The position numbers and the translations under genes are program-made. DNA of 64,000 nucleotides from Paenarthrobacter ureafaciens (GTDB taxonomy: Bacteria > Actinomycetota > Actinomycetes > Actinomycetales > Micrococcaceae). A model generated the notes under the pieces. That model did not search any database and was not told the origin of the DNA. It worked only from the letters and a program-made list of their open reading frames with translations. Where the stretch lies: contig NZ_SBHM01000003.1 in the NCBI RefSeq assembly GCF_004028095.1, positions 45,957 through 109,956 of the forward strand. Reading direction: 5' to 3'. Every line of letters starts with the position of its first letter. The first letter of the stretch is position 1. Of this stretch, positions 39,473 to 54,888 are shown piece after piece.

Positions 39473-42373
39473 ATGACGGGCATCATCGATTCGGGTTCCC
39501 CTCCTTTGGTGGGCAGGATGAAGGAATTGTCGCGGCTCGGTGACGCACTGCAGCAAGTCCGCAGCGGCCGGCAAAGAACCGTTTTGGTCACTGGCGACGC
39601 CGGCATCGGGAAGACCGCTCTGATCTACGAAGCCATTGCGGGACTCCCGGGGGACGTTATTGTCCTGTCCGGTGCTGCCCTTCCCCTTCACAGTATCGAG
39701 ATCCCGTACCAACCCTTGCGCGCGGCCTTCAGGGGCACTGCCGGCATCAGAACGCCGGAACCATTTAGTGAGGACAGCGCGGCCGGGCATCCGGCAAGCA
39801 CTCCCCTCTTCCTGGATGAATGGTTGAGTGCGGTCACAGCCGCGCATCCGGTGCTCCTCGCGATCGATGACCTGCACTGGGCGGACCAGGGCACGTTGGA
39901 TACGTTGATGTTTCTGATTGCGGGACCGTCCGATCGGCGGCTGGGGCTCGTAGCAACAGTCAGGGCGGATGCGGTGACGGAGGGTTCACTTCTGGAGGGG
40001 TGGCTTGCCGATGTGCGGCGGATCCCCGGTGTGAGCATTGAACGCCTTGGCCCCTTGGACCGCCCGGCCACGTCCGCATTGATCGCATCGCTGCTGGGTC
40101 GCGAACCGCATCAGTCCCTGATTACGGAAGTGTACGGGCGCGCGAATGGAAACCCGTACTTCACCAAACTCCTGGTGGAGCCACTGGATCCGGCCGCGTC
40201 GTCCCTTCCGCCCGGACTCCCGCCCGACCTGCGGACCGCAGTGCTGCGTTCCTGGCGGGCCCTGCCGCAGTCTGCCCGACGGGTTACCCAGGTCCTGGCT
40301 GTTGGCGGCAAGAATGCTCCGGTTGAAGTGTTCACGGTGGTCGTGAAGCGGGCGCTACCCGGGGAGGATGCCCTTTCTGTTCTCCTGGCTGCGTCGACAG
40401 CCGGGATCCTCGACCGCCAACCCGACGGCAGCTACTGGTTCCACCACCCGCTCATCGCCGAGACCCTGGCATCCGAAACACCTCCCGAGGACCGGATCCA
40501 GTGGCACCGGCTGTTCGCCGAGGCCTACTCGACAGTTCCGGGTTCAGGCGAGCTCCACCACCGGGCGGCCGCCGATCTTGCCCAACACTTCTACGGCTCC
40601 GGGAACTACGAGGAGGCCTACCGGTGGGCGCTTGAGGCGGCACGTCAGGAATCGGCCTCGCGGGACTGGAACAAGGCCCTTGCCCAGTACCACCGGGTCC
40701 TGGAGTTACGGCCCAAGGTGGTCGCTGCCGGGGAATGGCTTGACCTGTGGCAGGAAGTGCGCCGGAGCGCTTTCAATGCAGGCGCTTTCGAGGCGGAACT
40801 CGACGCTATCGAGGCCCTGCTTCGACTCCTCAACGAGCGCCTCCAGCCACTCGAGGTGGCTGCACTGATCATCAGGCGCATGCACTTGCGAATGTCCCTG
40901 GGTCTCTCCTTCCTGGATCCGGCAGAGGCCGAACGCGCCGTGCAGCTTTCGTCCGTGGAGCCTGACAGCTGGCAGCATGCCTTGGCGATGGCCGAGCTGG
41001 TTCATGCCAAACTCTGGATGGACCAATACAAGGGCTCTCCGGACTGCGCGAAGGTTGTTGAGGCGGCCCGCAAGACTGGGCATCACCGGGCTTTGAGTTT
41101 CGCGCTCACTGCCTCGGCCATGGCGGCAGTGTTCAGCGGCGACTCCGGCGCGGCCAGGGAAGCCGCCCGTGAGGGTGCCTCGGAAGCGGCCCTGGCGCAG
41201 GACTTCTGGGCCTTTTGCCATGCCTTGGCGTGGCTGGCAAATGCCACGGAAGGGTGGATCAGCGAACAGTACGGCGCCATCATGAGCTCCGGCAGGGAGG
41301 AACTTTCCCGGCTGGGCGCTCCGCATTCCTTCATGTCGAAAGTAGCTGCCGACGAGGCCGCCAGCTTCCTGGCCATTGGGTCATGGGAGAAGGCTCGAAC
41401 AGCTTTACGAACAGCCATCAGTTTTGACCCCGGGCCCATGGGAGACGTCAGTGCCCGGCTCACCCTGGCCCGGCTGGATGCGTTGCAAGGCAGGACCAAC
41501 GACGCCTTGGCGCACCTCGCTCGCGCCGAAGAGGTGAACCGTGAATCCGATGCCTTCGTTAACCTGAATTTCGCTGCCATTCGTTCCGAACTCAACATCA
41601 TGGCGGGAAACCCCAAGGCAGGATTCGAAACAGCCGTGGCCGCTGCATCCCGGGCCGGTCATGCACCCACCATGTGCGAGTGGCTCCTGCCCTTGGCCAT
41701 GAGGGCCGCCGCCGACATGATCATGCAAGCCAGGGATACCGGTGGGCCGCTGTCCGGGCTGGAAGCCGCAGTGCGGGATGTGCGGAAACGTTTCCCGGCC
41801 GCGCTCCACGAACCCGGACAGGCAACCCCCCTTTACCAACGCCAGATCAAGGCCTTCGACATGCTGTATACCGCCGAGACCGGACGGGCACTGGCGGATA
41901 AGCGGAACGACGCAATGTGGATCGCTGCCGCCGACGCATGCAAAGAAGCCAACCTGGCATGGGAAGAGGCGTACGCCTGCCAACGCGCAGGTGAAGCCAT
42001 GCTCTTCCATACCCATCATGGCCAAACGAACGCAGCAGGGATACTGCGCCGCGGGCTGGAACTGGCAACCACACTGCAGGCCGCGCCCGTGCGGACGGCG
42101 ATACTGGGGTTGGCGGACCATGGACGGATACGACTCGACGCTGAACCACCCACGACGCGGAGGAGCACCGGACCGTTCCCGGGCCTGACCACCCGCGAAA
42201 CCGACGTTCTCGAACAACTAATCGCCGGCAGTACCTATAAGGAGATCGCCGCAGACCTTTTCATCAGCGAGAAAACCGTCAGCACGCACGTCTCCCACCT
42301 CCTGCGGAAAACTGGCTCGACAAATCGAAGGGACCTGGCGCGCAAAGCCAGTGGGCGGCGCAGGGAGGACTAG
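39473..42373 (+). CDS. Large ATP-binding LuxR family (LAL) transcriptional regulator
   Basis: The 966-residue protein has an N-terminal STAND/AAA ATPase domain with Walker A GDAGIGKT at 41-48 and Walker B VLLAIDDLHWAD near 130. A long helical repeat middle region and a C-terminal LuxR helix-turn-helix (LTTRETDVLEQLIAGSTYKEIAADLF) follow at about 900-960. LAL regulators are usually activators of nearby sugar, lipid or secondary metabolic genes. Its 3' end overlaps the convergent aspartate-dehydrogenase-like gene by four bases. The target genes are unknown. Confidence 0.87.
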   Translation: MTGIIDSGSPPLVGRMKELSRLGDALQQVRSGRQRTVLVTGDAGIGKTALIYEAIAGLPGDVIVLSGAALPLHSIEIPYQPLRAAFRGTAGIRTPEPFSEDSAAGHPASTPLFLDEWLSAVTAAHPVLLAIDDLHWADQGTLDTLMFLIAGPSDRRLGLVATVRADAVTEGSLLEGWLADVRRIPGVSIERLGPLDRPATSALIASLLGREPHQSLITEVYGRANGNPYFTKLLVEPLDPAASSLPPGLPPDLRTAVLRSWRALPQSARRVTQVLAVGGKNAPVEVFTVVVKRALPGEDALSVLLAASTAGILDRQPDGSYWFHHPLIAETLASETPPEDRIQWHRLFAEAYSTVPGSGELHHRAAADLAQHFYGSGNYEEAYRWALEAARQESASRDWNKALAQYHRVLELRPKVVAAGEWLDLWQEVRRSAFNAGAFEAELDAIEALLRLLNERLQPLEVAALIIRRMHLRMSLGLSFLDPAEAERAVQLSSVEPDSWQHALAMAELVHAKLWMDQYKGSPDCAKVVEAARKTGHHRALSFALTASAMAAVFSGDSGAAREAAREGASEAALAQDFWAFCHALAWLANATEGWISEQYGAIMSSGREELSRLGAPHSFMSKVAADEAASFLAIGSWEKARTALRTAISFDPGPMGDVSARLTLARLDALQGRTNDALAHLARAEEVNRESDAFVNLNFAAIRSELNIMAGNPKAGFETAVAAASRAGHAPTMCEWLLPLAMRAAADMIMQARDTGGPLSGLEAAVRDVRKRFPAALHEPGQATPLYQRQIKAFDMLYTAETGRALADKRNDAMWIAAADACKEANLAWEEAYACQRAGEAMLFHTHHGQTNAAGILRRGLELATTLQAAPVRTAILGLADHGRIRLDAEPPTTRRSTGPFPGLTTRETDVLEQLIAGSTYKEIAADLFISEKTVSTHVSHLLRKTGSTNRRDLARKASGRRRED

Positions 42374-43164
42374 ATAATTCCGCCCCGCGCGCCAACGATC
42401 AGTTCCAGTGAGCGCAGCACGGCAAACGGCACAATGCCGCTGGTACGCGGGTTTTGCGGCGATACCTGATTGCAGATTTCGAAGCGGTAGGTCCCGCTGT
42501 TCCCGGCGGCCTCGATCACGTGCGTCGTCAGCCGGGCAGCCGGGTCCACCCGCACGGACACATCCACGCCCCAGTCCGCTACGGCCAGGGCGACCGCCGC
42601 GGCCACATTGAGCGATTTCGGGAACAAGCGCGTGGCCTGGTCAGCAGGGCCTTGGTAGATTTCGAGCGGAACAGCGGTGTTCCGGATTCGATCTTCTTCC
42701 TTCTCATCCATCCACGGCTGCACCAGGGAAGCGGGCAGCTTGGTCGTCGTGATTTTGACGGCGTCATAACCCGTTGCCCGGGCTCCCGACGCCAACAGGT
42801 CCAAGCCACCGATGGAGCCGGACGTCAGGAAGAGCCTGCCCGGACCGGCTGCGGACAAGCGGCCCGAAAGATCAGGGTCCGCCAGGGCTCCCAGCGATGT
42901 GGCCAGCAGATCGACACCCGCAGACAGCACTGCCTCGCCGTGTTCGGCAAGGGCTTCCTGGCCCGCGCATTCGACCAGCACATCGCAACGCTCCAACGCC
43001 TCAGCCATGTCCAGGCGGGCCGCCGGAGCGTTTGGAACGGGACTGCGGCTGACGATGCCCTCCAGAGAGGCACCTGCCACTTTCCCTGCGGCAACATCCG
43101 CAGCCACCCGGGCCCCGATGGCCCCGTGTCCGATGATTCCAATTTTGCGGGCTACTGGCTTCAT
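42370..43164 (-). CDS. Aspartate dehydrogenase homologue (amino acid dehydrogenase, DUF108 family)
   Basis: The 264-residue protein has an N-terminal Rossmann motif KIGIIGHGAIGARVA and the family C-terminal domain. The latter shows FPKSLNVAAAVALA, the catalytic His segment LTTHVIEAAGNSG, and NPRTSGIVPFAVL. NadX-type L-aspartate dehydrogenases feed NAD synthesis, but no nadA or nadC is adjacent. It lies 47 bases downstream of marR, probably in one transcript. A catabolic role on an amino acid or iminium intermediate of the neighbouring pathway is more likely. The substrate is not proven to be aspartate. Confidence 0.75.
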   Translation of the reverse strand: MKPVARKIGIIGHGAIGARVAADVAAGKVAGASLEGIVSRSPVPNAPAARLDMAEALERCDVLVECAGQEALAEHGEAVLSAGVDLLATSLGALADPDLSGRLSAAGPGRLFLTSGSIGGLDLLASGARATGYDAVKITTTKLPASLVQPWMDEKEEDRIRNTAVPLEIYQGPADQATRLFPKSLNVAAAVALAVADWGVDVSVRVDPAARLTTHVIEAAGNSGTYRFEICNQVSPQNPRTSGIVPFAVLRSLELIVGARGGII

Positions 43165-43211
43165 GCGTTTCCTTACTAGTGGGTTAGGTGGACATTCCGC
43201 CCCAGGACCGC

Positions 43212-43769
43212 CTAGGCATTGGAAGGGATCTTGTCCTGGGAGGAAGCCTTGGGGTCATAGGCGACGATGGAGGCTTCGGCCTTCTTGAGCAAGAGGGCCA
43301 GTTGTTCAATCTCTTCGGCTGTGAGGCCGGAGAGCATGTTGCGCTGCGTTTCCAGATGCTTGGAAATCACCTCATCGATGAGCTTCTTGCCGTGCTCGGT
43401 GATCTGGGCGTAGACGACGCGACGGTCCTCTTTTGATCGAACACGCTCGATGAGGTTCTGCTCCTCCATGCGGTCCAGGCGGAACGTGATCCCTCCCGTT
43501 GTCAGCATGGACGAACTTGCGAGCTCACCAGCGGTTTTGCGGTGGGGAGGCCCTGATCGGCGCAAATTTGCCAGGACGTCAAAGGAAGCCAACGTGAGCC
43601 CATGCTCCTCGTAGTTCGCGTCCTGCACGGCGCGCTGCCGTGCAACGAGGCTTTGCAGGCGGCCAAAAACTCCAATGGTCCTGGCATCGAGTTCGGGACG
43701 TTCGCGACGCCAGTCCTCGATGATCGCATCTACGGCATCCGGGTCGGTGTTTTGGGGCTCGGTGGTCAT
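43212..43769 (-). CDS. MarR family transcriptional regulator
   Basis: The 185-residue protein contains a winged helix typical of MarR: LASFDVLANLRRSGPP near residue 75, AGELASSSMLTTGGITFRLDRME, and SKEDRRVVYAQITEHGKKLIDEV, where the Asp-Arg pair of the wing is visible. It probably represses its own transcription: a palindrome at 43872-43889 lies within its promoter. The same sequence type occurs in the promoter of the 11-gene operon starting at 54888. A pathway aromatic acid is a likely effector. Confidence 0.88.
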   Translation of the reverse strand: MTTEPQNTDPDAVDAIIEDWRRERPELDARTIGVFGRLQSLVARQRAVQDANYEEHGLTLASFDVLANLRRSGPPHRKTAGELASSSMLTTGGITFRLDRMEEQNLIERVRSKEDRRVVYAQITEHGKKLIDEVISKHLETQRNMLSGLTAEEIEQLALLLKKAEASIVAYDPKASSQDKIPSNA

Positions 43770-43867
43770 GTGCTCTCTCCTTAATTTCGTCCAAGCATCT
43801 TAACACTGAGCTTTCCAGTACCCCGGTGAACCGCGCCCGTTCCCGCAAGTGTCTTGCAGCGCTTTCC

Positions 43868-43896
43868 ATTATATCTTAGTCTTGAGATAGTTAGGA
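43868..43896 (-). promoter_or_regulatory. marR promoter with MarR operator in the -35/-10 spacer
   Basis: On the minus strand a perfect -10 TATAAT lies at 43873-43868, and a weak -35 (TCCTAA) is 17 bases upstream. Between them is the imperfect palindrome TATCTTAGTCTTGAGATA (43872-43889). It also lies 77 bases before the divergent cupin start. Autorepression and co-control of the cupin gene are inferred. Confidence 0.6.
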
Positions 43897-43965
43897 CCGA
43901 GGAAGATTCACTTCCTGCAAGGCCCTTACGAAATCCGGCAATTTACCACCAGAGAGAGGTCCATC

Positions 43966-44484: not shown

Positions 44485-44493
44485 CCCCCTGGG

Positions 44494-44527
44494 AGCCCGG
44501 GTACCGGCGATGGCCGGTACCCGGGCT
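44494..44527 (+). terminator. Intrinsic terminator of the cupin gene
   Basis: A 15-bp stem without mismatch (44494-44508 with 44513-44527) has a GATG loop and a TCTTCTT tail, starting 10 bases after the cupin stop. Confidence 0.85.
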
Positions 44528-44699: not shown

Positions 44700-45791
44700 C
44701 TATGCGGTTCCCTCTGCGAGAGTGGCTGCCTGCTTCTGTGCATCGGCGTCGTGGATGCGCCTGATCCTGGCCACGCCAAGATCGTGCTGGTACAGGTGCT
44801 CGTCCCTGTCGGCGTCGGCCGCCAGAGCCTCCAACAGCGCGCGGTCCTGTTCCAGGACCACCCAGTGCTTTTCCTCCAGTGTTGTCTTGTACATGAACCG
44901 CCAGACGTCACGCTCCCAATCGGAGACGGTCCGGGTACGCCAGTGGAACACAGCGGAGGTAACCGCATCTATGGGCGTGGACATCCCGACGATGCCGAAG
45001 GAGCCGCCGGGACCGGCTGAATCGGCGTAAGGGATCTCCAGGTCCACGTAGTCCATGGCCTCACGGCAGTACTCCACCCAGTCGAAGTTCTTGCCGCGCT
45101 GGTCCGTCTTCTCGAAGAAGAATCCGCGGTCCGTTTCGCGGATGCGGAAGCGGGCGCTCGTGTCTCCGCCAAACATTGAATGCGATTCACGGTGCAGGAA
45201 CGCCCCGTGCATGGGATCCAGGACGTTGTCCATGTAGAACCGCCACGGACTGTTCCACTCCGCGTAATTGGAGAACCACGAAATATCGGGGTTGTCCAGA
45301 CGATCAGGCAACTTGAAGGGGGTTACCTCCGAGTCCGCGGTCAGTGGCATGAAAGCGAAGATCATGTCCGCGCCCTCCTCCACGGCCAGGGACGCAGTGA
45401 CTGTTTTCCCCTCCAGCGCACAGCCGGGCATGCCGGGAACCGACACCACCGTTCCGTGTCCGTCCACCTGAACTCCGTGGTACTTGCATGCCACCCGGTC
45501 ACCCAGGTGCTGGCCTACGGACAGGGGCGCGCTGCGGTGGGGGCAGCGATCCTCCAGCATCCGGATTTGTCCCCGGGCATCACGGAACAGCAGCCAATCC
45601 ACGCCCAACCGCCGGACCTTGACCATATCCCCCTGGCCAACGAACCGGGAGGGATAGATGGCGTACCAGCGGTCCCGCAGTCCTGTGGCAGCCAGTTCTG
45701 CGGCATCGAGCTGACGCCGGGTACCGACCACCGTTTTCGGCATGGCCCTGCCGGCCCTTGCCCCGGTTGAAGTTGCAGTTGCAGTTGTCAT
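44700..45791 (-). CDS. Rieske non-heme iron oxygenase, VanA-like alpha subunit
   Basis: The 363-residue protein has a Rieske cluster site, Cys83-x-His85 and Cys102-x2-His105 (RCPHRSAPL and ACKYHG). The mononuclear iron motif is NVLDPMHGAFLHRES, with His195 and His200. Its length and single-subunit form match the vanillate demethylase / ring-hydroxylating VanA group, which use a VanB-type reductase. Such a reductase is encoded in the same operon (51880-52938). Likely chemistry is hydroxylation or O/N-demethylation of an aromatic acid. It is the last gene of the operon. Confidence 0.87.
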   Translation of the reverse strand: MTTATATSTGARAGRAMPKTVVGTRRQLDAAELAATGLRDRWYAIYPSRFVGQGDMVKVRRLGVDWLLFRDARGQIRMLEDRCPHRSAPLSVGQHLGDRVACKYHGVQVDGHGTVVSVPGMPGCALEGKTVTASLAVEEGADMIFAFMPLTADSEVTPFKLPDRLDNPDISWFSNYAEWNSPWRFYMDNVLDPMHGAFLHRESHSMFGGDTSARFRIRETDRGFFFEKTDQRGKNFDWVEYCREAMDYVDLEIPYADSAGPGGSFGIVGMSTPIDAVTSAVFHWRTRTVSDWERDVWRFMYKTTLEEKHWVVLEQDRALLEALAADADRDEHLYQHDLGVARIRRIHDADAQKQAATLAEGTA

Positions 45792-45794: not shown

Positions 45795-46013
45795 CTACTC
45801 TCCCAGTCGTCGCATTTCGGAACGGAATCGGGCTTCATCCCACGGCTGGCCGTCCGGGGCATTAAGCCCCAGGTTGTTCAACCCCGAAATGACCGCCGGA
45901 AGTTCGTGGCTGCCGCTGGCGAAAATTTCGGACAGGGCGCCGGCGAGCTTCAGCTCATAGGGGTTCGGCGGACCGACACGGGACTGGTTGGCATCCAGGT
46001 ATTGCTCAGGCAC
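45795..46013 (-). CDS. 72-residue protein in the Rieske operon, unknown
   Basis: This short protein lies three bases upstream of the Rieske gene and overlaps the preceding hydrolase-like gene by eight bases, so its translation is coupled to both. It is mixed polar with segments NPYELKLAGALSEIFASG and PWDEARFRSEMRRLGE, probably helical. I recall similar small proteins annotated as recombinase-like helix-turn-helix next to Rieske genes, but cannot confirm that here. A small subunit or assembly factor for the oxygenase is possible. Confidence 0.65.
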   Translation of the reverse strand: MPEQYLDANQSRVGPPNPYELKLAGALSEIFASGSHELPAVISGLNNLGLNAPDGQPWDEARFRSEMRRLGE

Positions 46014-46647
46014 GGGGTTCCTCCTGTAATTGGGTGGGGAGTGATTGCGAGACGGTGTGCAGGCCTTCAGCGATCTTCATGAACGACCTGCTCCACTCGT
46101 TGAACGAGGTGGATCGGCTTTGATGTGCCGGCACGGTGGCGTTGTCGATGATGACGAAAACACCGTTGCCGATGCCGCCTGCGATGCATTGGGCTATGGA
46201 AACATCGGCGTCGATGTCGGGTGCGGCGGCAATGACCAGGGACGGTGCGCGAACCTGCCGGAGCGCTGCCACGAATCCGTCAGTGGACGTGTCCACCAGC
46301 GGGTCGCCAAGGATCATGCTCTTGACCTGTTCAGGATGCCGCGCAGCGAGGAGTATGGCACCGTAGGCGGCTGCGCCGTTGGCCAGGACATGCGCCGGGC
46401 CGGCCGTAGACTCCCGGAGCGCCTCAGAGGCCGCTTGAACCCAGGCGTCCAGTTGGCCAGGTGGTCCCCCGACGTCCAGGGCAAGACCCGTTTCAGGTTC
46501 CCAGGCACGGGCTCCCAACGTGTCCAGTTGATGCTCATCCCACTCTCCGGTCCCTGCGCCGCCGCGCAGACACACCACGTCATGCCGCGGCTCGGCCGCG
46601 TCGGGCCCAGGGCCGGCGTACGGGTCCGGATCAGTACTTGGGTTCAT
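46006..46647 (-). CDS. Alpha/beta-hydrolase-like protein lacking the nucleophile Ser
   Basis: The 213-residue protein aligns with alpha/beta-hydrolases through LLAARHPEQVKSMILGDP, which follows the nucleophile elbow in active enzymes. The elbow itself reads NGAAAYG (residues 90-96), so G-x-S-x-G is gone and an Ala takes the Ser place. The N-terminal 20 residues are Pro/Asp-rich. The ATG at 46647 has AGGTGA just upstream; the longer frame to 47022 is a shadow of the TPP gene. It may be a structural partner or bind ligand without hydrolysis. Confidence 0.65.
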   Translation of the reverse strand: MNPSTDPDPYAGPGPDAAEPRHDVVCLRGGAGTGEWDEHQLDTLGARAWEPETGLALDVGGPPGQLDAWVQAASEALRESTAGPAHVLANGAAAYGAILLAARHPEQVKSMILGDPLVDTSTDGFVAALRQVRAPSLVIAAAPDIDADVSIAQCIAGGIGNGVFVIIDNATVPAHQSRSTSFNEWSRSFMKIAEGLHTVSQSLPTQLQEEPRA

Positions 46648-48415: not shown

Positions 48416-49204
48416 CTAGACATAGCGCCCAACGCCACCGCCGACGTCGATGGTCGCCCCAGTGGTGTAGCCGCTGTTGGGCGAGAGGAGACAGACAATA
48501 TGGAACGCAACCTCCTCCGCTGTGCCGAAACGGCCCAGCTTGATGCCGCGGTCACCGGCGATTTCCGCACTCCAGGCCTCGTAGTCGAGATCGGTGCCGG
48601 CATTTTCGAAGCGTCGCCGCCACTGTCCCGTGTCCACCAGTCCCAGCAGGACCGAGTTCACGCGCGTGCCGTCCTTTGCCAGGTCTTCGGCAAGGGAATG
48701 GGTCAGGTTCAACAGCGCGGCGCGGGCGGCGGAGGTAGCGGCCAGGCGCAGCTCGGGCTGCCGGGCAAGAATGGCGTTGACATTGACCACGGACCCGTGG
48801 GCGGAGGCGCTCAAGGCGATCCTGGCCGACCGCACCATGTTGAGGACGCCGAAGATCTTCAGCTCGAACTCATCGCGCAGTTGCTGGTCCGTGGTTTCCT
48901 GGAGAGTGGCCATGAGCGATCGTCCGGCGTTGCAGACCAGCCCGTCCATGGCGCCGAACCGATCCAGCGTTCCGGCGATGAAGGCGTTGGTGGCTTCCTG
49001 GTCCGTGACGTCGCACGAGGCAAGGTGGATGGAGTCCTTGTCCGCCCAGGAAAACTCGTCGAACGCCGCGGTGAGCCGGCCGAGGTCACGGGCACAGGCG
49101 GCAACCCGCGCGCCTTCACTGAGCAAATAGCGTGCGGTGGCAAGGCCGACGCCGGAACTCGCCCCGGTGACCACCACCGTGCGGTCCTTCAGTTGCAGGT
49201 CCAT
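48416..49204 (-). CDS. SDR-fold protein with substituted catalytic residues
   Basis: The 262-residue protein keeps the cofactor motif TGASSGVGLATARYL (13-27) and CNAG near 92-95, so a Rossmann fold is clear. The active site is not: aligned to VVNVSSI...Y-S-A-S-K-A, it reads VVNVNAI and TSAARA, giving Ala144 for Ser, Thr157 for Tyr and Arg161 for Lys. The Asn of the usual tetrad also appears to be Lys116. Normal hydride-transfer catalysis is unlikely. ATG 49204 follows AAGGAG. A second, intact SDR gene lies 72 bases upstream. Confidence 0.8.
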   Translation of the reverse strand: MDLQLKDRTVVVTGASSGVGLATARYLLSEGARVAACARDLGRLTAAFDEFSWADKDSIHLASCDVTDQEATNAFIAGTLDRFGAMDGLVCNAGRSLMATLQETTDQQLRDEFELKIFGVLNMVRSARIALSASAHGSVVNVNAILARQPELRLAATSAARAALLNLTHSLAEDLAKDGTRVNSVLLGLVDTGQWRRRFENAGTDLDYEAWSAEIAGDRGIKLGRFGTAEEVAFHIVCLLSPNSGYTTGATIDVGGGVGRYV

Positions 49205-49276: not shown

Positions 49277-50020
49277 TCAGTGGCCCATCACGAAGCCGCC
49301 ATCCACCACGATGGTCTGGCCGGTGACGAACCCCGCGGCGTCGGAGAGCAGGAACTGGACCACTCCCGATACATCGTTGGGTTGTTGGTCCCTGGGCAGC
49401 ACCCGGTTGTCTTCATAGAGCCGGTAGCGTGAGGCGGGCACCGATTCAGTGGCTTCCACCCGGGTCAACCCCGGGGCCACCGCGTTGACACGGACTCCCG
49501 ATGGCCCTGCGTCGCGGGCCATGGACCGGGTCATGGCGAGCACGGCCCCTTTTGATCCAACGTAGTGGACCAGCCGTGGGCTTCCGTAGAGCGCTGCGTC
49601 AGAGGCGATGTTCACGATCGCGCCCGCCGGGGACTGGGCAAGCTGGGGGAAGAGGTGCTTGCTGACCAGCCAGGTCCCGTAGGCATTGACCGTCATCACC
49701 CTTTGGAAGAATCCTTCCTCCAGTTCCCAGAAAGTATCGCCGCCTACGCCGTCGGCCAGTGCCGCGTTGTTGACCAGCGCATCCGCGCCGCCCAGCTGCC
49801 GGACCGCCGTCGCCAGGGCCTCCACCGAAGCCTTGTCAGCTATGTCGGTGACCACCGCCGTGACATCCAGGCCGCGTTCATGGAGTGTTGCGGCGGCCCG
49901 TTCCGCGAGGTCCGCGTTCTTCTCCGCGATGACTATCCGGTCGCCGGCACGTGCCAGTCGTTCGGCAATGTCGAAGCCCAGGCCACGCCCGGATCCCGTC
50001 ACTACCACCAGGCGCGTCAC
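49277..50020 (-). CDS. Short-chain dehydrogenase/reductase
   Basis: The 247-residue protein is a canonical SDR: VVTGSGRGLGFDIAERLA cofactor motif, NNAALADG, Ser in VNIASDAALYG, and Tyr/Lys in HYVGSKGAV. It ends with TIVVDGGFVMGH. A cis-dihydrodiol dehydrogenase role would suit a Rieske oxygenase operon, although VanA-type oxygenases usually make phenols directly. It overlaps the preceding hydrolase gene by four bases and is therefore translated with it. Confidence 0.85.
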   Translation of the reverse strand: MTRLVVVTGSGRGLGFDIAERLARAGDRIVIAEKNADLAERAAATLHERGLDVTAVVTDIADKASVEALATAVRQLGGADALVNNAALADGVGGDTFWELEEGFFQRVMTVNAYGTWLVSKHLFPQLAQSPAGAIVNIASDAALYGSPRLVHYVGSKGAVLAMTRSMARDAGPSGVRVNAVAPGLTRVEATESVPASRYRLYEDNRVLPRDQQPNDVSGVVQFLLSDAAGFVTGQTIVVDGGFVMGH

Positions 50021-50844
50021 TGGATGCCGTCCCAGAAAGCGAGGATGGCCGCCGACATCTCAAGGGGCTTCTCCTGCACTGCCGCGTGGCCCGCATTGGG
50101 GATAATGCACAGTTCGGCGCCTGGAATCTTCTCGGCGAGGATCCTCGATTCGGGCACGCCGGTGATCACATCGTCCTGTCCGGCCAGCACGAGCGCCGGA
50201 ACCCGCAACCCGGGCAGCAGGTCCGTCGTATCACACTGCGCCATCATGGTGGCCGCCGACGCGAACCCGGACAGGCGGACGGAGGCCATGTCCGCCCGGA
50301 CAGCTTCGGCCACCCAGGCGGGGGCGGATGGAGAGACCAGCTTCGAGGCGCGCCGGGCTGCAATACTTTCAGGCCCGACGGCGGCCAGTTCAGGAACGCG
50401 GGCCAGCATGCGTTGCGCTGTGTCGTGCGTGGTTCCCGAACCCCGCGTGCTGTCGGCCAGGACAATGGACCGTACTGCCTCCGGCGCCCTCGCGGCTACC
50501 GTGGTGGCAATGACCCCGCCCCACGATGTGCCAAAGAGGTGTGCCGGCCCAACGCCGAGGGTGGCCAGGATGTCCAGTACCAACGACGGATGATCCAGTC
50601 CGTCCGTTGGAGCGGCGGACTCGCCGTAACCGGGCGCATCCCAGCAGAAGGTCTGGTAGCCGTGGGCGCTCAACAGTTGGGCCAGCGCACCACAGGACGA
50701 CGCGGCTCCCCCGATGCCGTGCATCAGGAAGACGGGAATCCCTTCACCGCGAACCACGAGGGAGACTCCGTGAACGGACTTTCTACGCTCGGCAACAGCG
50801 GGGGTCGAAGGGGCGGTGGGCGCCGGCAACGAGCCGCTACGCAT
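50017..50844 (-). CDS. Alpha/beta-hydrolase, candidate meta-cleavage C-C hydrolase
   Basis: The 275-residue enzyme has a complete catalytic triad: Ser107 in LFGTSWGG, Asp224 or Asp225 in LAGQDDVI, and His253 in NAGHAAVQE. The oxyanion HGIGG motif is near 43. This layout fits 2-hydroxymuconate-type C-C hydrolases, which follow extradiol ring cleavage. The ring-cleavage dioxygenase gene ends eight bases inside this gene. The ATG at 50844 sits just inside the upstream gene's 18-bp repeat. Esterase activity is an alternative. Confidence 0.82.
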   Translation of the reverse strand: MRSGSLPAPTAPSTPAVAERRKSVHGVSLVVRGEGIPVFLMHGIGGAASSCGALAQLLSAHGYQTFCWDAPGYGESAAPTDGLDHPSLVLDILATLGVGPAHLFGTSWGGVIATTVAARAPEAVRSIVLADSTRGSGTTHDTAQRMLARVPELAAVGPESIAARRASKLVSPSAPAWVAEAVRADMASVRLSGFASAATMMAQCDTTDLLPGLRVPALVLAGQDDVITGVPESRILAEKIPGAELCIIPNAGHAAVQEKPLEMSAAILAFWDGIQ

Positions 50845-51847
50845 GGGCTTTTTCTGTGGCAGGGGCTTTTTCAGTGGCAGGGGCCTTAGCCGGGGAGAAA
50901 TAGTCCTCACGGCCGGGGACCACCAGGGACCGGTAGCCGCTGTCCGGAACGCCCGCCATGGCGCTTCGCACCGCGGTGGTCGGCGGACCTGCGGTGCCCC
51001 ACTGGTCGGACAGTTCGGGCGTTCGCTCCCACGTACGGCAGAGCCAACTGTCCTCATCCACCTGGGCAACTTCGGAGGTGTATTCGCAGACCAGTCCCGC
51101 GGGGTCCGTGAAGTAGGAGAAAGTGTTGTCGCCCGGACCGTGCCGGCCCGGACCCCACTGCGGGGCAATGTTGTGCTGTTTCAGGTTGCCGATGCCGCGC
51201 ATGAAGTGGTCAATGCTCTGCATCTCATAGGCCACGTGGTTGACCGAGGTCCAGGGCGCCTGGTTGAACGCGATTGCGTGGTGCTCGCTGTTGCACCGGA
51301 GGAAGGCCATCTGGTGCTCGGACCAGTCGGATATCCGCATCCCCAGCACTTGGGTGTAGAACGCGGTGGCGCGGTCGATGTCCACGGTGTTGAGGACCAC
51401 GTGGGCGATCTTGCGGGGAAGGGCGCGCCGGCCGGCCGGCTCCTGGCTGACCACCGCATGGACGTTCGCGGAAAGTTCCACGAGCCTGCCTTCGGGATCC
51501 ACCAGTTGCACGCCATATCCACCGGCAGCATCATCCAGGGGTCCGGGCTCACGGAAAAGCGGTATTCCCAGGGCAACGAGCTTGGTAGCCGCGGAATCGA
51601 CGTCCTGCGGCGTGGCCAGTGCGAAGGAGACCCCGCCCAGGGCATTCTGCTCACCCGTTTCCAGCCTCAGGATGTGGTGTTCGGATCCGGTACCGCGGAG
51701 CCAGAATTTGTCTGTGTCCTCTTCTACCGTGGAGAGACCCCAGACTTGGTCATAGAAGTCCTTGGCCGGCTTGGTATCGGGTACTTTCAAGGACACGGAA
51801 CGCAGCGAACGCAGATTGCAGACAGGCTCGCTTGAGAAAAAGTTCAT
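50837..51847 (-). CDS. Type I extradiol ring-cleavage dioxygenase (VOC family)
   Basis: The 336-residue protein has the two-domain vicinal oxygen chelate architecture. Iron ligands are His149 (KIAHVVLN), His204 (VNHVAYE) and Glu255 (LVCEYTS), the standard spacing for catechol 2,3-type dioxygenases such as BphC/HsaC. The C-terminus carries the tail APATEKAPATEKA, encoded by a tandem 18-bp repeat. It would cleave a catechol made by the Rieske oxygenase and SDR. The ATG at 51847 begins MNFFSSEPV with the expected domain directly after. Confidence 0.87.
   Translation of the reverse strand: MNFFSSEPVCNLRSLRSVSLKVPDTKPAKDFYDQVWGLSTVEEDTDKFWLRGTGSEHHILRLETGEQNALGGVSFALATPQDVDSAATKLVALGIPLFREPGPLDDAAGGYGVQLVDPEGRLVELSANVHAVVSQEPAGRRALPRKIAHVVLNTVDIDRATAFYTQVLGMRISDWSEHQMAFLRCNSEHHAIAFNQAPWTSVNHVAYEMQSIDHFMRGIGNLKQHNIAPQWGPGRHGPGDNTFSYFTDPAGLVCEYTSEVAQVDEDSWLCRTWERTPELSDQWGTAGPPTTAVRSAMAGVPDSGYRSLVVPGREDYFSPAKAPATEKAPATEKAHA
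50845..50880. repeat. Tandem 18-bp repeat at the dioxygenase/hydrolase junction
   Basis: GGGCTTTTTCTGTGGCAG (50845-50862) is followed by a copy with one change (50863-50880). It encodes the ATEKAP tail of the dioxygenase and lies immediately upstream of the hydrolase start codon at 50844, so copy-number change would lengthen or shorten the tail in frame. Confidence 0.8.
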
Positions 51848-51879
51848 GGGAATCAGCCTTCAGTCGGGTGGTGTTCGTA

Positions 51880-52938
51880 CTAGAGATCCAAAATCAGTTC
51901 CCGGGACCGGCAACGCGAGACACAGACGAACATCGTCTTGTTCTCTGCCTGTTCAGCCGGGGAGAGCAGGAAGTCGCGGTGCTCGACGTCGCCGGCTATG
52001 ACGCCGGTCTCACAGGTTCCGCAGATGCCCTCCGCGCATGAACTGGGCACGAAGATGCCGGCGCCGTTCAGGGCGTCCAGGACTGAGATGTCAGGCCCAA
52101 CAGCAACGCGCTGGCTCGACCGTTGGCAGATGACGTCAAAGCTTGTGGCCTCGGTTTCCGGACCGGACACGACCTCCGGCGCTTTGAACCGCTCTATCCT
52201 CAATTGCGAATCGTCCGCCATGGCGCCGGCCACTGCCTGCATCAACGATTCAGGGCCGCAGGCATAAACCAATGCTTTTGGGGGCAGGGCACCAACTGCT
52301 TTGGGGAGATCCGCGTAGGCTCCCCCGGCTTCGTCCATGGCGTGGATGCTGATCCGGTGTGCGGGAAAGCCGGAAATTTCCGGGAGGAATGCCATGGTGG
52401 ACCGGGACCGTCCCGTATAGAGGAGGGACCAGTCAGCGCCGGCTGCTTCCAGGCGCCTCGCCATGGAAATGATCGGGGTGATGCCAATGCCTCCGGCCAC
52501 CAACGCATACCGCTGCGCCTGCTCGAGTTCAAAGTTGTTGCGGGGACCTTCGACTGTGAGGAGCGTGCCCACCGGCAGTTCGTCATGGATCAGCCTGCTG
52601 CCACCGCGGGAATCGGTGGTCCGCAGCACTGCCACGGTCCAGGCGGAGGAATCGTTGGGGTCCGAGCACAGGGAGTATTCGCGCGTCAGCCCGTTGGGCA
52701 AGTGGAGGCTCAGGTGGGAGCCTGGTAGCCACTGCGGGAGAGCCGCCCCCTGCGGATCAACGAAGGTGATGCTGACGACGCCGTCCGCTTCCCACCGTTT
52801 CTGCTGCACCCTCAGCGTCAGTGCTTTGGGTTCCGCAGCGATGGTCGCGGCCTGGTCTCCTGTGCCAGGACCCGACGTCAGATCGTCTGCGGTGTCCTCG
52901 GGGATGGTCGTCCCACGGTTCTGAATGTCCACGCTCAT
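51880..52938 (-). CDS. PDR/VanB-type oxidoreductase (FMN, NAD, 2Fe-2S)
   Basis: The 352-residue protein has an N-terminal flavin domain (TREYSLCSDPND near residue 90), a NAD-binding domain (ALVAGGIGITPIISMARRL near 145-165), and a C-terminal plant-type ferredoxin domain with Cys301, Cys306, Cys309 and Cys339 (CAEGICGTCE, MFVCVSR). This is the phthalate-dioxygenase reductase/VanB layout. It is the natural electron donor of the Rieske oxygenase at the end of the same operon. It sits five bases after the RidA gene. Confidence 0.9.
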   Translation of the reverse strand: MSVDIQNRGTTIPEDTADDLTSGPGTGDQAATIAAEPKALTLRVQQKRWEADGVVSITFVDPQGAALPQWLPGSHLSLHLPNGLTREYSLCSDPNDSSAWTVAVLRTTDSRGGSRLIHDELPVGTLLTVEGPRNNFELEQAQRYALVAGGIGITPIISMARRLEAAGADWSLLYTGRSRSTMAFLPEISGFPAHRISIHAMDEAGGAYADLPKAVGALPPKALVYACGPESLMQAVAGAMADDSQLRIERFKAPEVVSGPETEATSFDVICQRSSQRVAVGPDISVLDALNGAGIFVPSSCAEGICGTCETGVIAGDVEHRDFLLSPAEQAENKTMFVCVSRCRSRELILDL

Positions 52939-52943
52939 GGTCC

Positions 52944-53288
52944 TTAACTCCTCCGATGCGCGATTGCTTCGATCTCCCCCGACGCGCCGTAGGGCAGTGC
53001 GGCAACTTCAACGAATGAGCGTGCCGGGCGGGGATTCTCGAACAGCAGCTCGTAGTGCAGGTTTGCTTCGTCCCGCAGCGTTACGTCTGTGACGAAATAG
53101 GTGGTCTTGACGACGTCCGCCAGGGACATGCCGACTGATTCCAAACGTTCGGCCAGCCTCGCGCCTGCTGCGACGAGCGCCTCCGAGCGGCCCGGTACGG
53201 CCGTGCCGTTCTCATCCACCGACAAGGCGCCGGAGACGAAGCCGAATCCGCCGGCCACGAAGGCCGGACTGTAGGGGTGGGCATTCAT
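52944..53288 (-). CDS. RidA family protein
   Basis: The 114-residue product has AGGFGFVSGALSVDENG, MSLADVVKTTYFVTD and the ending PARSFVEVAALPYGASGEIEA. The last holds the conserved Arg (near residue 91) and Glu of active imine/enamine deaminases. It is second in the operon, between the aldehyde dehydrogenase and the reductase. Together with the aspartate-dehydrogenase homologue it suggests that an amino or imino group is handled in this pathway. Confidence 0.85.
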   Translation of the reverse strand: MNAHPYSPAFVAGGFGFVSGALSVDENGTAVPGRSEALVAAGARLAERLESVGMSLADVVKTTYFVTDVTLRDEANLHYELLFENPRPARSFVEVAALPYGASGEIEAIAHRRS

Positions 53289-53328
53289 TGATCTACCTTT
53301 CGGAAGCTGGTGATGCGGGCCGGTTCGC

Positions 53329-54888
53329 TTAAAGGCCGGCCCATGGGATGGGTGCACCCGAGAGGTCCATATAGATGCTCTTCTGGCGCATGTAGGAACG
53401 AATGCCGTCGCGGCCCTTTTCGGTACCCAGACCGCTTTCCTTAAGCCCGCTGAAGGGGGTCGAAATGCTGAATTGCTTATAGGTGTTGATCCACACGGTG
53501 CCGGCGGCAATGGCCCGCGCCAACCGCCAGGCCCGGCGGTAGTCGGCAGTCCAGATGCCACAGGCCAAGCCAAAGACGCTGTCGTTCGCCTGGGCGATGA
53601 GGTCCGCTTCGTCGTCGAACGGCAGGATGACGGCCACGGGACCAAAAATTTCCTGCTGGCAGATGGCGTCCGAGTTACTGACACCGGCAAGGATGGTGGG
53701 CTCATAGAACGCCCCGCCCTGCAACCGGGACTCCGTGGGGACAGCGCCTCCGCACAAAACCTGCGCACCGGCCGACTTCGCTGCTTCGACCATGCCCGCA
53801 ACGGTGTCGCGGTGTGCGAAGGCCACCAGGGGCCCGACCTGCGTAGCCGGGTCTGTGCCCGGTCCGATCCGCAACGCTTTTGCCCCTTTCACGAGCCTTT
53901 CCACCACGTCGTCGTACACGGCGCGCTGGATGAAGACACGCGACCCGGCGATGCAGCTCTGACCGCTTGAGGAGAAGATGCCGTAGAGCACTCCGGCCAC
54001 AGCCTGGTCCACGTCGGCATCGGCGAAAATAACCGTGGGTGATTTTCCTCCCAGTTCCAACGTGATGGGCATGATTTTTTCGGCTGCGATGTGGGCAAGT
54101 TGACGCCCCGTGGAAGTCCCGCCCGTGAAGGAGATCTTCCCAACATCCGGATGTTTGGCGACGGCGTCGCCAACTACCCGGCCAGGGCCCGGCAGCACCG
54201 ACAGCAAACCGGCAGGAAGACCGGCCTGCTCACAAAGGCGGGCCAGCAGCAGCGAGACCCAGGGGGCCCACACCGGCGGCTTCACCACGACGGCGTTTCC
54301 TGCCGCGAGTGCCGGAGCCACCTTTTGCGCGTCACTGGCTATGGGTGAATTCCACGGCGTGATGGCCCCCACCACCCCGATCGGCTCATAGGTGGACATG
54401 CTGAGGTAGTTGCCCCGCGGCGGCGTCAGGGCATCTTCCATGGTCTCCAAGGCAGCTGCCGTGAAGCGGAAGGTTGCCGCCGCGCTCATGGCCAATGCCT
54501 TCGTTTCCACGAGGCTTTTGCCCGTATCAAGCGTCTGCAGCTCCGCGATCCTGTCAGCGTTGGCTTCAATCGCGGAGCTGATGCGGTGAAGGACTGCGGC
54601 GCGTTCGTGCGGGAGCCTCCTTGCCCACCCCGACGCTTTGACGGCCTCCAGGCCGGCGGCCACTGCGGCGTCCACATCGGCCGCCGTTGCTGCGTGGAGG
54701 GTGGCAAAAACTTCTGCCGTAGCGGGATTCACCGACTCGATCAGCGCACCACTACCCCGGGTCCACACTCCGCCAACAAAGATCTCGTCCCGCGTATCAG
54801 GTCCGTTGCGAAGACCGGCCGCGCCGGGTGCCCGGGTTTCTTCCCGAGCAGACCGGGAGGGGTTCTCTGTAAGGCTGTCCGTACTCAT
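53329..54888 (-). CDS. NAD(P)-dependent aldehyde dehydrogenase
   Basis: The 519-residue enzyme is full length. It has ITPWNSPIASDAQKVAPALA near 177-196, general base Glu278 in LELGGKSP and nucleophile Cys312 in GQSCIAGS. It resembles semialdehyde or betaine aldehyde dehydrogenase families (HpaE, BetB relatives). As first gene of the 11-gene operon it probably oxidises an aldehyde released by the TPP enzyme or by ring cleavage. The N-terminal 35 residues are hydrophilic and unrelated to the fold. A promoter with an operator lies about 100 bases upstream. Confidence 0.88.
   Translation of the reverse strand: MSTDSLTENPSRSAREETRAPGAAGLRNGPDTRDEIFVGGVWTRGSGALIESVNPATAEVFATLHAATAADVDAAVAAGLEAVKASGWARRLPHERAAVLHRISSAIEANADRIAELQTLDTGKSLVETKALAMSAAATFRFTAAALETMEDALTPPRGNYLSMSTYEPIGVVGAITPWNSPIASDAQKVAPALAAGNAVVVKPPVWAPWVSLLLARLCEQAGLPAGLLSVLPGPGRVVGDAVAKHPDVGKISFTGGTSTGRQLAHIAAEKIMPITLELGGKSPTVIFADADVDQAVAGVLYGIFSSSGQSCIAGSRVFIQRAVYDDVVERLVKGAKALRIGPGTDPATQVGPLVAFAHRDTVAGMVEAAKSAGAQVLCGGAVPTESRLQGGAFYEPTILAGVSNSDAICQQEIFGPVAVILPFDDEADLIAQANDSVFGLACGIWTADYRRAWRLARAIAAGTVWINTYKQFSISTPFSGLKESGLGTEKGRDGIRSYMRQKSIYMDLSGAPIPWAGL

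What the first reader, a model, noticed from the sequence alone, without database searches (positions are those of the whole stretch)
42370..54888. A catabolic regulon with an unassigned aromatic pathway
The genes marR-aspDH homologue, cupin, and an 11-gene operon (ALDH, RidA, VanB-type reductase, extradiol dioxygenase, C-C hydrolase, SDR, degenerate SDR, TPP enzyme, serine-less hydrolase, 72-residue protein, VanA-type Rieske oxygenase) form a logical sequence: hydroxylate, cleave the ring, hydrolyse, decarboxylate, oxidise. The presence of an amino acid dehydrogenase homologue plus an active-looking RidA suggests a nitrogen-bearing aromatic or amino acid intermediate. I could not match the full set to a named pathway. 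Gene families are clear; the pathway is inference.
Basis: partly seen in the sequence, partly recalled or inferred. Interest (0 to 1): 0.75.

Follow-up and report, generated by a model that had tools for sequence, protein, structure and literature searches.

The report
Likely kynurenate degradation gene cluster
This soil actinobacterium carries a version of a widespread, so far unassigned gene cluster that most likely breaks down kynurenate-type quinoline acids made from the amino acid tryptophan, which would supply genes for a degradation route described biochemically decades ago.

Summary
In detail: an 11-gene minus-strand operon (54888-44700) with marR, aspDH and a divergent cupin, tied together by a shared MarR operator. 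It is a variant of a conserved cluster found in Enterobacterales, Acinetobacter, Burkholderiales, marine gammaproteobacteria, alphaproteobacteria and Streptomyces: HTH_62 protein, Rieske oxygenase, SDR1, extradiol dioxygenase, atypical SDR2, TPP enzyme, aldehyde dehydrogenase, aspartate dehydrogenase, alpha/beta hydrolase, cupin. It is rare in sampled actinobacteria. A molybdenum hydroxylase (upstream here) recurs beside it in eight genomes, a NicC-like flavin hydroxylase in eleven; on one Vibrio plasmid the latter accompanies the lower genes with no Rieske or SDR1 found nearby. The cluster's aspartate dehydrogenase is the only one in 14 of 14 genomes tested, and the Klebsiella copy matches, at both termini, an enzyme with published, specific activity. 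Best reading (0.55): catabolism of quinoline-2-carboxylates (kynurenate; quinaldate and xanthurenate as feeders): dihydroxylate, rearomatise, cleave, reduce, decarboxylate, oxidise, open the pyridone, release iminosuccinate. Apart from that assayed enzyme, steps are inferred from families and gene order; no substrate was tested, and some clusters lack single genes. No gene assignment appeared in the open papers searched; paywalled work could not be searched.

The parts
53329..54888 (-). aldehyde dehydrogenase (519 aa), first gene of the operon
   Evidence: Pfam Aldedh; NCBIfam HpaE/BADH-like but below cut-offs; GQSC and ELGG motifs present; cluster relatives 52-76% identical
52944..53288 (-). 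RidA-family imine/enamine deaminase (114 aa)
   Evidence: Pfam Ribonuc_L-PSP on the longer frame; start set; RPAR motif; 73% in G168; a RidA-family gene, as annotated, also in Caballeronia M1242
51880..52938 (-). VanB/PaaE-type FAD + [2Fe-2S] reductase for the Rieske oxygenase
   Evidence: none within 10 kb in the 80 named loci, where ferredoxin (78 of 80) and FAD reductase (59 of 80) stand instead
50837..51847 (-). VOC-fold extradiol dioxygenase
   Evidence: H149, H204, E255, H189/H190 and Y245 conserved in 82 of 82 aligned rows; closest solved chain 3b59
50017..50757 (-). alpha/beta hydrolase, PcaD-like, intact catalytic residues (start uncertain; longest frame starts 50889)
   Evidence: Pfam Abhydrolase_1; G.S.G; S122, D240, H268 conserved in 84 of 84 rows
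49277..50020 (-). SDR1, YxxxK intact; proposed cis-dihydrodiol dehydrogenase
   Evidence: follows the Rieske gene in most of the 80 named loci
48416..49204 (-). SDR2, atypical TSAAR centre; proposed reductase of the side-chain C=C
   Evidence: NF005468 above cut-off; signature in 82 of 88 rows; closest solved chain 3lf1 shares it
46664..48334 (-). TPP-dependent 2-oxoacid decarboxylase/lyase
   Evidence: NF005470 above cut-off; HE and GDG motifs
46006..46647 (-). serine-less alpha/beta-hydrolase-like protein (start uncertain)
   Evidence: no Pfam hit, weak PcaCD similarity, no GxSxG; among the loci compared a relative was seen only in G168, 49%
45795..46013 (-). 72-aa HTH_62 (PF20552) protein, three-helix fold
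   Evidence: directly upstream of the Rieske gene in 79 of 80 named loci; model pLDDT 85.1; no PDB fold match at E<=0.001
44700..45791 (-). VanA-type Rieske oxygenase, last gene of the operon
   Evidence: Pfam Rieske + VanA_C; CxH, CxxH and NxxDxxH....H motifs; 80% in G168, 59-61% in Streptomyces, 41-50% in proteobacterial plasmid records
43966..44484 (+). cupin, HxH....E metal motif
   Evidence: H87, H89, E94 in 84 of 84 rows
43212..43769 (-). MarR regulator
   Evidence: 74% in G168, 48-51% in five of six... Streptomyces loci with a marR label next to the cluster
42370..43164 (-). aspartate dehydrogenase homologue (divergent)
   Evidence: Pfam Asp_DH_C; only family member in its genome; H215 conserved in 82 of 82 rows; below NCBIfam cut-offs
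43796..43812 (+). MarR operator-like box, 2 mismatches
43872..43888 (+). MarR operator, marR/cupin divergent promoter
   Evidence: 0 mismatches
54992..55008 (-). MarR operator over the operon promoter-like site (TTGACA-17-GATATT, 55019-54991)
   Evidence: promoter-like sites in the region are not above chance in number (2 found, 2.8 in shuffles)
55011..56261 (-). XdhC-type Mo-cofactor maturation protein
56254..58593 (-). molybdenum hydroxylase large subunit (XDH family)
   Evidence: 70% beside TPP/VOC2/AspDH in G168; nearest plasmid relative in what I read as a nicotinate-type cluster
58590..59123 (-). molybdenum hydroxylase [2Fe-2S] subunit
   Evidence: 71% in G168
59120..60013 (-). molybdenum hydroxylase FAD subunit
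   Evidence: 54% in G168
60139..61098 (-). TauD-family dioxygenase (possible regulon member)
61095..62447 (-). MFS transporter, metabolite/H+ symporter type (possible regulon member)
   Evidence: MarR operator upstream
62572..62588 (+). MarR operator upstream of the MFS-TauD pair
   Evidence: 0 mismatches

Best explanation
The cluster encodes catabolism of quinoline-2-carboxylic acids, kynurenate first of all. Proposed steps: (1) Rieske oxygenase + VanB reductase: 7,8-dioxygenation of kynurenate. (2) SDR1: dihydrodiol to 7,8-dihydroxykynurenate. (3) VOC dioxygenase: 8,8a-cleavage to a 4,6-dihydroxypicolinate with a 3-carboxy-3-oxopropenyl chain. (4) Atypical SDR2: reduction of the chain. (5) TPP enzyme: decarboxylation of the 2-oxo acid. 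(6) ALDH: oxidation to 5-(2-carboxyethyl)-4,6-dihydroxypicolinate. (7) Alpha/beta hydrolase, perhaps with the cupin: lactam opening and retro-Claisen cleavage to glutarate and iminosuccinate. (8) AspDH reduces iminosuccinate to aspartate; RidA hydrolyses it to oxaloacetate and ammonia. The molybdenum hydroxylase feeds in quinaldate (4-hydroxylation); elsewhere a NicC-like flavin hydroxylase feeds in xanthurenate. MarR represses. Shown: gene set, conservation, motifs, operator-like sites; and, in print, aspartate dehydrogenase activity of the protein that matches the Klebsiella orthologue at both termini. Inferred: substrate, every other step, and induction.
For: Conserved gene set: 69 of 80 named loci hold all nine core genes within 10 kb; in 6 of the other 11, SDR2 and its neighbours lie further downstream, SDR2 12-22 kb from the Rieske gene. 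The triplet enone reduction + 2-oxoacid decarboxylation + aldehyde oxidation after extradiol cleavage is, as far as I recall, the mark of the kynurenate route. AspDH is the only family member in 14 of 14 cluster genomes tested, each time inside the cluster. The K. pneumoniae cluster AspDH has both termini and the length of published KpnAspDH, which is specific for oxaloacetate/aspartate (pyruvate 3.9%, 2-oxoglutarate 3.5%) with Km for ammonium 52.6 mM (PMC5554190, parts 1 and 2 of 3 read), fitting a preformed imine with a carboxyl next to N. A molybdenum hydroxylase lies with the cluster in 8 genomes: window, G168, Caballeronia NK8, Billgrantia, G794, G832, G710, G971 (in G794 and G710 the contig ends after the large subunit); its nearest plasmid relative lies in what I read as a nicotinate-type cluster. 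The recurring flavin hydroxylase (11 genomes) is closest in the PDB to 6-hydroxynicotinate 3-monooxygenase (340 of 383 residues given). In Vibrio nigripulchritudo it accompanies the lower genes with no Rieske, SDR1 or HTH_62 match in 37 kb. Two entry routes, unhydroxylated and mono-hydroxylated ring, fit kynurenate and xanthurenate. G790, a probable Delftia relative, has the cluster and, on another contig, a TDO gene overlapping an aromatic transaminase gene. The window's own genome has TDO and a kynureninase-like gene about 74 kb away.
Against: No substrate was tested. TDO was found within 10 kb in 2 of 80 named loci, both Marinobacterium and about 6 kb from the cluster beyond unrelated genes. 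TDO occurs in 13 of 25 and 12 of 13 cluster genomes without a matched background. Not every cluster is complete: of 13 further Burkholderiales genomes, 5 hold all ten genes in the stretch read; G1013 lacks AspDH, G837 SDR2 and ALDH, G832 SDR2 and hydrolase, G790 cupin and hydrolase; the other 4 have short contigs. The VOC differs strongly between groups (24-30% window versus gammaproteobacteria), and its wider family also serves phenylpropionate-type clusters. The window AspDH is divergent: below all NCBIfam cut-offs (147 bits against 177) and unlike the family at many conserved columns. The molybdenum hydroxylase is seen in 1 of the 80 named loci. The rest of the Vibrio genome was not searched. 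Cupin and hydrolase roles are guesses. From memory, old extract work reported glutamate and alanine as products, which fits the proposed split less directly.
Confidence: 0.55

Rival explanations
1. Same architecture, another N-heteroaromatic acid: a different quinoline, indole or fused pyridine carboxylate is dihydroxylated, ring-cleaved and split to an imino acid. Kynurenate is not the main substrate.
For: The N evidence (AspDH, RidA, molybdenum hydroxylase, NicC-like hydroxylase) does not by itself single out kynurenate. Variable transporters and feeders (MFS, ABC, TRAP, sulfatase, GH3) and missing single genes suggest several substrates.
Against: The reduction/decarboxylation/oxidation triplet plus an aspartate end product fits 4-oxygenated quinoline-2-carboxylate best. 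A pathway common in animal-, insect- and plant-associated bacteria suggests an abundant natural substrate.
Confidence: 0.27
2. A carbocyclic aromatic pathway (arylpropionate or substituted benzoate). AspDH and RidA only protect against reactive imines or rebalance aspartate and do not act on pathway intermediates.
For: The VOC family and TPP enzyme also suit carbocyclic substrates; VOC relatives at about 39-40% lie near genes annotated as phenylpropionate-type hydroxylases. One otherwise complete cluster (G1013) has no AspDH on its contig.
Against: AspDH is in nearly every cluster that could be read in full and is the genome's only copy in 14 of 14. Molybdenum hydroxylase and NicC-like partners point to N-heterocycles.
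Confidence: 0.1
3. An aminophenol-type route: ring cleavage to 2-aminomuconate semialdehyde, with ALDH and RidA as semialdehyde dehydrogenase and 2-aminomuconate deaminase.
For: ALDH and RidA are adjacent in the window and in G168, as I recall for amn genes.
Against: A RidA match was found in 1 of 80 named loci while the rest is largely constant; the dioxygenase is VOC type, not the two-subunit type I recall for aminophenol; no 4-oxalocrotonate decarboxylase or hydratase was found among the scanned genes 42370-62447.
Confidence: 0.04

Closest known systems
Kynurenate (quinoline) branch of tryptophan degradation in Pseudomonas: kynurenate 7,8-hydroxylase, dihydrodiol dehydrogenase, 7,8-dihydroxykynurenate 8,8a-dioxygenase (EC 1.14.99.2, 1.3.1.18, 1.13.11.10; all recalled, from no call)
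   Same: Order and type of reactions match the enzyme families of the cluster one to one through the carboxyethyl-dihydroxypicolinate
   Different: To my recollection no genes are assigned; activity not tested here; end products reported then differ from the iminosuccinate proposal
Characterised aspartate dehydrogenases KpnAspDH and DelAspDH (PMC5554190)
   Same: KpnAspDH has the termini and length of the K. pneumoniae cluster AspDH; DelAspDH has the C-terminus and nearly the N-terminus of the G790 cluster AspDH
   Different: Studied as free biocatalysts; the parts read (1 and 2 of 3) name no pathway context; only the ends, not the whole sequences, could be compared; the window copy is a divergent orthologue
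Short-chain oxidoreductase Q9HYA2 (PDB 3lf1, 3lf2; Pseudomonas aeruginosa PAO1 and its atypical catalytic centre recalled)
   Same: Closest solved relative of SDR2, E 3e-58, shares the ATSAARA stretch
   Different: Substrate unknown as far as I recall; the paper is not held
Nicotinate/6-hydroxynicotinate pathway (NicC; cluster of Variovorax SRS16 that I read as nic-type)
   Same: Relatives of the recurring flavin hydroxylase and of the window molybdenum hydroxylase
   Different: No Rieske, extradiol VOC, TPP or AspDH genes in the annotated stretch shown
iad auxin degradation locus of Variovorax
   Same: MarR control and a Rieske oxygenase
   Different: iad uses a two-subunit Rieske IadDE and ends at anthranilate (passages of PMC12633357); here a single VanA-type subunit and ring cleavage

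Membership tests
Kynurenate 7,8-dioxygenase pathway | Rieske-type oxygenase with NAD(P)H reductase | tested here: met
Kynurenate 7,8-dioxygenase pathway | dihydrodiol dehydrogenase and extradiol dioxygenase with intact active sites | tested here: met
   SDR1 YxxxK; VOC H149/H204/E255 in 82 of 82 rows; families only, not activity
Kynurenate 7,8-dioxygenase pathway | C=C reductase, 2-oxoacid decarboxylase and aldehyde dehydrogenase downstream | tested here: met
   SDR2, TPP and ALDH all in the window; families only. Elsewhere mostly constant but SDR2 was not found in the stretches read of G832 and G837
Kynurenate 7,8-dioxygenase pathway | turnover of kynurenate | not testable with these tools
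   needs purified enzymes or growth tests
Kynurenate 7,8-dioxygenase pathway | genetic link to tryptophan-to-kynurenate genes | tested here: inconclusive
   TDO within 10 kb in 2 of 80 named loci; TDO in 13 of 25 and 12 of 13 genomes without matched background
L-aspartate dehydrogenase (EC 1.4.1.21) | reductive amination of oxaloacetate | tested here: inconclusive
   Shown in PMC5554190 for the protein with the termini of the K. pneumoniae cluster AspDH; window copy only homologous and below NCBIfam cut-offs
iad auxin degradation | two-subunit Rieske oxygenase IadDE | tested here: not met
   single VanA-type subunit; iad features
Homoprotocatechuate meta-cleavage (hpa) | HpaD/HpaE equivalogs | tested here: not met
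   103 bits against cut-off 321 and 444 against 638
2-Aminophenol (amn) pathway | two-subunit 2-aminophenol 1,6-dioxygenase (recalled) and 4-oxalocrotonate enzymes | tested here: not met
   single VOC dioxygenase; no such genes among those scanned in 42370-62447
Molybdenum hydroxylase (xanthine dehydrogenase family) | three subunits with MoCo, FAD and [2Fe-2S] domains plus XdhC | tested here: met
Naringenin (fde) pathway of Herbaspirillum | fde gene set | not tested
   considered from memory; only a search listing seen

The most novel reading that the evidence does not exclude
The cluster holds the long-missing genes of bacterial kynurenate catabolism, widened to quinaldate (molybdenum hydroxylase) and xanthurenate (NicC-like hydroxylase, with sulfatase or GH3 to free conjugates). 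It ends in a new kind of ring opening that releases iminosuccinate, captured directly by a pathway-dedicated aspartate dehydrogenase. Klebsiella, Acinetobacter, Serratia and Burkholderia would then carry a system that destroys a host immune metabolite.
Probability: 0.45. Interest if true: 0.85.

Novelty: new variant of a known kind. Interest (0 to 1): 0.62.

Why it matters
If right, it gives genes to three enzyme activities known since the 1960s but, to my recollection, without sequences. It also explains why many bacteria keep a single aspartate dehydrogenase inside a catabolic cluster, and it makes microbial removal of kynurenate, a tryptophan metabolite active in immunity and the nervous system (recalled), testable by genetics. 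Even if the substrate is another N-heteroaromatic acid, a pathway conserved from Streptomyces to Klebsiella with no substrate found in the papers searched is worth one growth screen.

Tried and rejected
Rejected: iad auxin degradation; hpa meta-cleavage; 2-aminophenol route (dioxygenase type; RidA in few clusters). Naringenin fde was considered, not tested (listing only). Literature leads that gave nothing on the cluster: locus-tag search PA3504-PA3509 (0 papers), kynurenate gene-cluster searches, general enzyme-set search. A search of viral contigs for the VOC gave nothing. A VOC search in 396 genomes of the phylum found 3 including its own, with at most 5 candidates scored per genome, while one search listed VOC relatives at 72-77% in Gordonia, Nocardia and Rhodococcus among others; their neighbourhoods were not seen. 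The HTH_62 model had no PDB fold match at E<=0.001, so subunit versus DNA-binding role stays open. A transaminase-like stretch behind the second NK8 cluster looks interrupted and is not used as evidence.
Full report
Observation. The operon is as described. ORF and profile scans place eleven minus-strand genes from 54888 to 44700, then marR and aspDH, with a cupin on the plus strand between the operon and marR. Two hydrolase starts (abh1, abh2) are uncertain. Gaps inside the operon are at most 81 bp (TPP-SDR2) and several genes overlap.

Regulation. An imperfect palindrome TATCTTANNNNTGAGAT (at most 2 mismatches) occurs at four places in the 64-kb window (5 matches, one place read on both strands; 0.14 expected, none of 100 shuffles reached 5): two in the marR/cupin intergenic region, one over the -10 of a promoter-like site before the operon (54992, where promoter-like sites are not above chance in number) and one upstream of MFS-TauD (62572). 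In a related Micrococcaceae genome, G168, boxes with at most 2 mismatches stand before the ALDH operon, between marR and cupin, before VOC2-TPP, before the molybdenum hydroxylase operon and before a binding-protein gene (5 places in 39 kb; 0.07 and 0.11 matches expected for the two pieces). This supports one MarR regulon and ties the molybdenum hydroxylase to it in G168. In the window itself no box was found directly before the molybdenum hydroxylase genes.

Distribution. Rieske homologues in plasmid records led to annotated clusters in Caballeronia, Acinetobacter, Klebsiella, Novosphingobium, Nitratireductor, Pseudosulfitobacter and Paracoccus and an unannotated one in Streptomyces. All 80 have an HTH_62 and an SDR1-family gene within 10 kb, HTH_62 directly upstream of the Rieske gene in 79 of 80. 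All nine core genes lie within 10 kb in 69 of 80. Of the other 11, six marine halophiles have SDR2 12-22 kb downstream with VOC, cupin, hydrolase, AspDH and ALDH around it (TPP lay beyond the piece read for Billgrantia). L021 and L074 are short loci at contig ends. L060 and L045 lack some labels, not followed up. L035 has no SDR2 match in its genome. TPP lies within the 10-kb flank in 18 of 80; it was read directly in K. pneumoniae and Marinobacterium. In actinobacteria the Rieske is rare: 2 of 245 Micrococcaceae genomes including its own, 7 of 394 of the class including its own; few candidates per genome were scored, so these are lower bounds. In Burkholderiales 15 of 399 at E<=1e-90. The window is thus an accessory, probably horizontally moved version, closest to G168 (Rieske 80%, VOC 87%, cupin 90%), while its Rieske is 41-50% identical to those of the proteobacterial plasmid records.

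Exceptions. Thirteen of the fifteen Burkholderiales genomes (the other two are already among the named loci) were read for up to 34 kb around the Rieske gene and recounted. Five hold all ten genes, TPP included: G912, G942, G815, G971, G1007. G837 lacks SDR2 and ALDH, G832 lacks SDR2 and the hydrolase, G790 lacks cupin and hydrolase in the stretch read, G1013 lacks AspDH on its 22-kb contig; G660, G668, G794 and G710 end early. So the set is strongly but not strictly conserved. AspDH was matched in all 12 plasmid-record cluster loci, in G168, in the six other actinobacterial regions fetched and in Vibrio.

Variable parts. Electron supply is VanB in the window, G168, Streptomyces, Caballeronia M1242 and some Burkholderiales, ferredoxin in 78 and FAD reductase in 59 of the 80 named loci, and an FAD oxidoreductase with a flavodoxin-type gene in three alphaproteobacterial records. 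A molybdenum hydroxylase lies in or next to the cluster in eight genomes among all contexts read: window, G168, Caballeronia NK8, Billgrantia, G794, G832, G710, G971 (in G794 and G710 only the large subunit before the contig ends; more distant members near G815 and G837 are not counted). It is seen in 1 of the 80 named loci. The nearest plasmid relative of its large subunit (38.9%, Variovorax SRS16) sits among genes annotated FAD monooxygenase, isochorismatase, alpha/beta hydrolase and leucyl aminopeptidase, which I read from memory as a nicotinate-type set. A flavin hydroxylase recurs in eleven genomes: Caballeronia M1242, Nitratireductor, five marine halophiles among the 80, Billgrantia, G168, G1007 and Vibrio. 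Its closest solved relative is 6-hydroxynicotinate 3-monooxygenase (E 3e-75; 340 of 383 residues of the G168 copy given). After seeing cupin-hydrolase-VOC-SDR2-TPP-AspDH-ALDH on a Vibrio nigripulchritudo plasmid with no Rieske or SDR1 annotated, I expected this hydroxylase nearby; it was there beside a TRAP transporter, with no Rieske, SDR1 or HTH_62 match at E<=1e-5 in the 37 kb read. The rest of that genome was not searched, and that hydroxylase and the TPP gene look interrupted in that record.

Active sites. Across aligned rows the VOC metal ligands, the cupin metal motif, the hydrolase catalytic residues and an AspDH histidine are constant (82 of 82, 84 of 84, 84 of 84, 82 of 82). SDR2 has TS[S/A]AR instead of YxxxK in 82 of 88 rows; five of the rest carry Y..SK and look like unrelated SDRs, one has SSAAR. 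Its nearest solved structure, Q9HYA2 (3lf1), shares the motif; an atypical centre described for that protein is recalled, the paper is not held. SDR2 is therefore a specialised enzyme, not a decaying one. The second hydrolase (abh2) lacks the serine and was seen only here and in G168.

Nitrogen end. The cluster AspDH is the sole Asp_DH_C protein in 14 of 14 cluster genomes tested. Published KpnAspDH (primer-derived MKKVMLIGY at the N-terminus, CRELA at the C-terminus, 254 aa) matches the K. pneumoniae cluster AspDH at both ends and in length; the middle could not be compared. It makes aspartate from oxaloacetate at 26.5 U/mg, prefers NADPH, hardly uses pyruvate or 2-oxoglutarate, and has Km for ammonium 52.6 mM (PMC5554190, parts 1 and 2 of 3 read). 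Such poor ammonium affinity suggests the physiological partner is a ready-made imine or the reverse reaction. If a pyridone with a carboxyl next to nitrogen is opened and split, iminosuccinate is what would be released. This points to a 2-carboxylated N-heterocycle.

Assignment. The sequence Rieske, diol dehydrogenase, extradiol dioxygenase, reductase, TPP decarboxylase, aldehyde dehydrogenase reproduces the kynurenate route as I recall it from 1960s work and from metabolic maps. Kynurenate enters by the Rieske step, xanthurenate would enter by the flavin hydroxylase, quinaldate by the molybdenum hydroxylase. A sulfatase in four marine clusters and a GH3 enzyme in Novosphingobium could free conjugates; this is speculation.

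Links to tryptophan. Tryptophan dioxygenase was found within 10 kb of the cluster in 2 of 80 named loci, both Marinobacterium, one with a gene that I read as kynureninase-like (not scanned), with unrelated genes between. TDO occurs in 13 of 25 and 12 of 13 cluster genomes against 2 of 14 control genomes, which are not matched in taxonomy. The window's genome has TDO (above cut-off) and a kynureninase-like gene (242 bits against 246) about 74 kb from the cluster. G790, probably Delftia or close kin by AspDH termini and size, has on another contig a TDO gene overlapping an aromatic amino acid transaminase gene. These are compatible, not decisive.

Prior reports. A. baumannii A1S_0956-0958, named L-aspartate dehydrogenase, betaine-aldehyde dehydrogenase and acetolactate synthase, rise about 2.2-2.4 fold with mucin (passages of PMC5757984), and A1S_0945, 0946 and 0956 appear in a list of genes expressed only in biofilm (passages of PMC3758355). 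Neither passage names a pathway for them; the match of tags to this cluster is inferred from names and order. Searches for kynurenate or quinaldate degradation genes found none; subscription journals are not covered. Passages of PMC11343714 were seen and did not bear on the question.

Verdict. A real, conserved, regulated catabolic cluster; nitrogen-bearing heteroaromatic acid likely; kynurenate-type quinoline acid the best single guess at about 0.55.

Noticed in passing
window 8595-12866 (+): Genes that look like a homoprotocatechuate operon: ALDH, VOC dioxygenase, hydratase and aldolase, read from the sequence without a family scan.
   Followed up: no
window 21227-27637 (-): Large flavin monooxygenase (796 aa), AMP-forming ligase, thioesterase-like protein, cupin and FAH-type hydrolase: looks like a salicylyl- or aminobenzoyl-CoA pathway, not scanned.
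   Followed up: no
window 62695-63885 (-): 396-aa regulator with two TetR_N stretches in one protein.
   Followed up: no
L005, L015 and other enterobacterial loci: The cluster lies at one chromosomal place in many Enterobacterales, next to genes annotated speA, speB and metK in K. pneumoniae.
   Followed up: partly
L035 (Candidatus Symbiopectobacterium): HTH_62 and Rieske genes without the lower genes nearby; SDR2 has no match in the genome: looks like a relic.
   Followed up: partly
L002 14326-25093 (Caballeronia NK8): A second cluster with its own Rieske, TPP, VOC, molybdenum hydroxylase and SRPBCC protein, and an interrupted transaminase-like stretch behind it.
   Followed up: partly
L103 16004-16312 and L183 (G668): A small conserved protein (102-118 aa) beside Rieske, RidA and HTH_62 genes, family unknown.
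   Followed up: no
P0031-P0126: VOC relatives at about 66-78% identity in many actinobacterial genera, although the Rieske is rare in that class; their gene neighbourhoods were not seen.
   Followed up: no
G832 and G837: Burkholderiales clusters without an SDR2 match in the stretch read; in G832 the molybdenum hydroxylase follows the Rieske gene directly. They may handle a related substrate.
   Followed up: no
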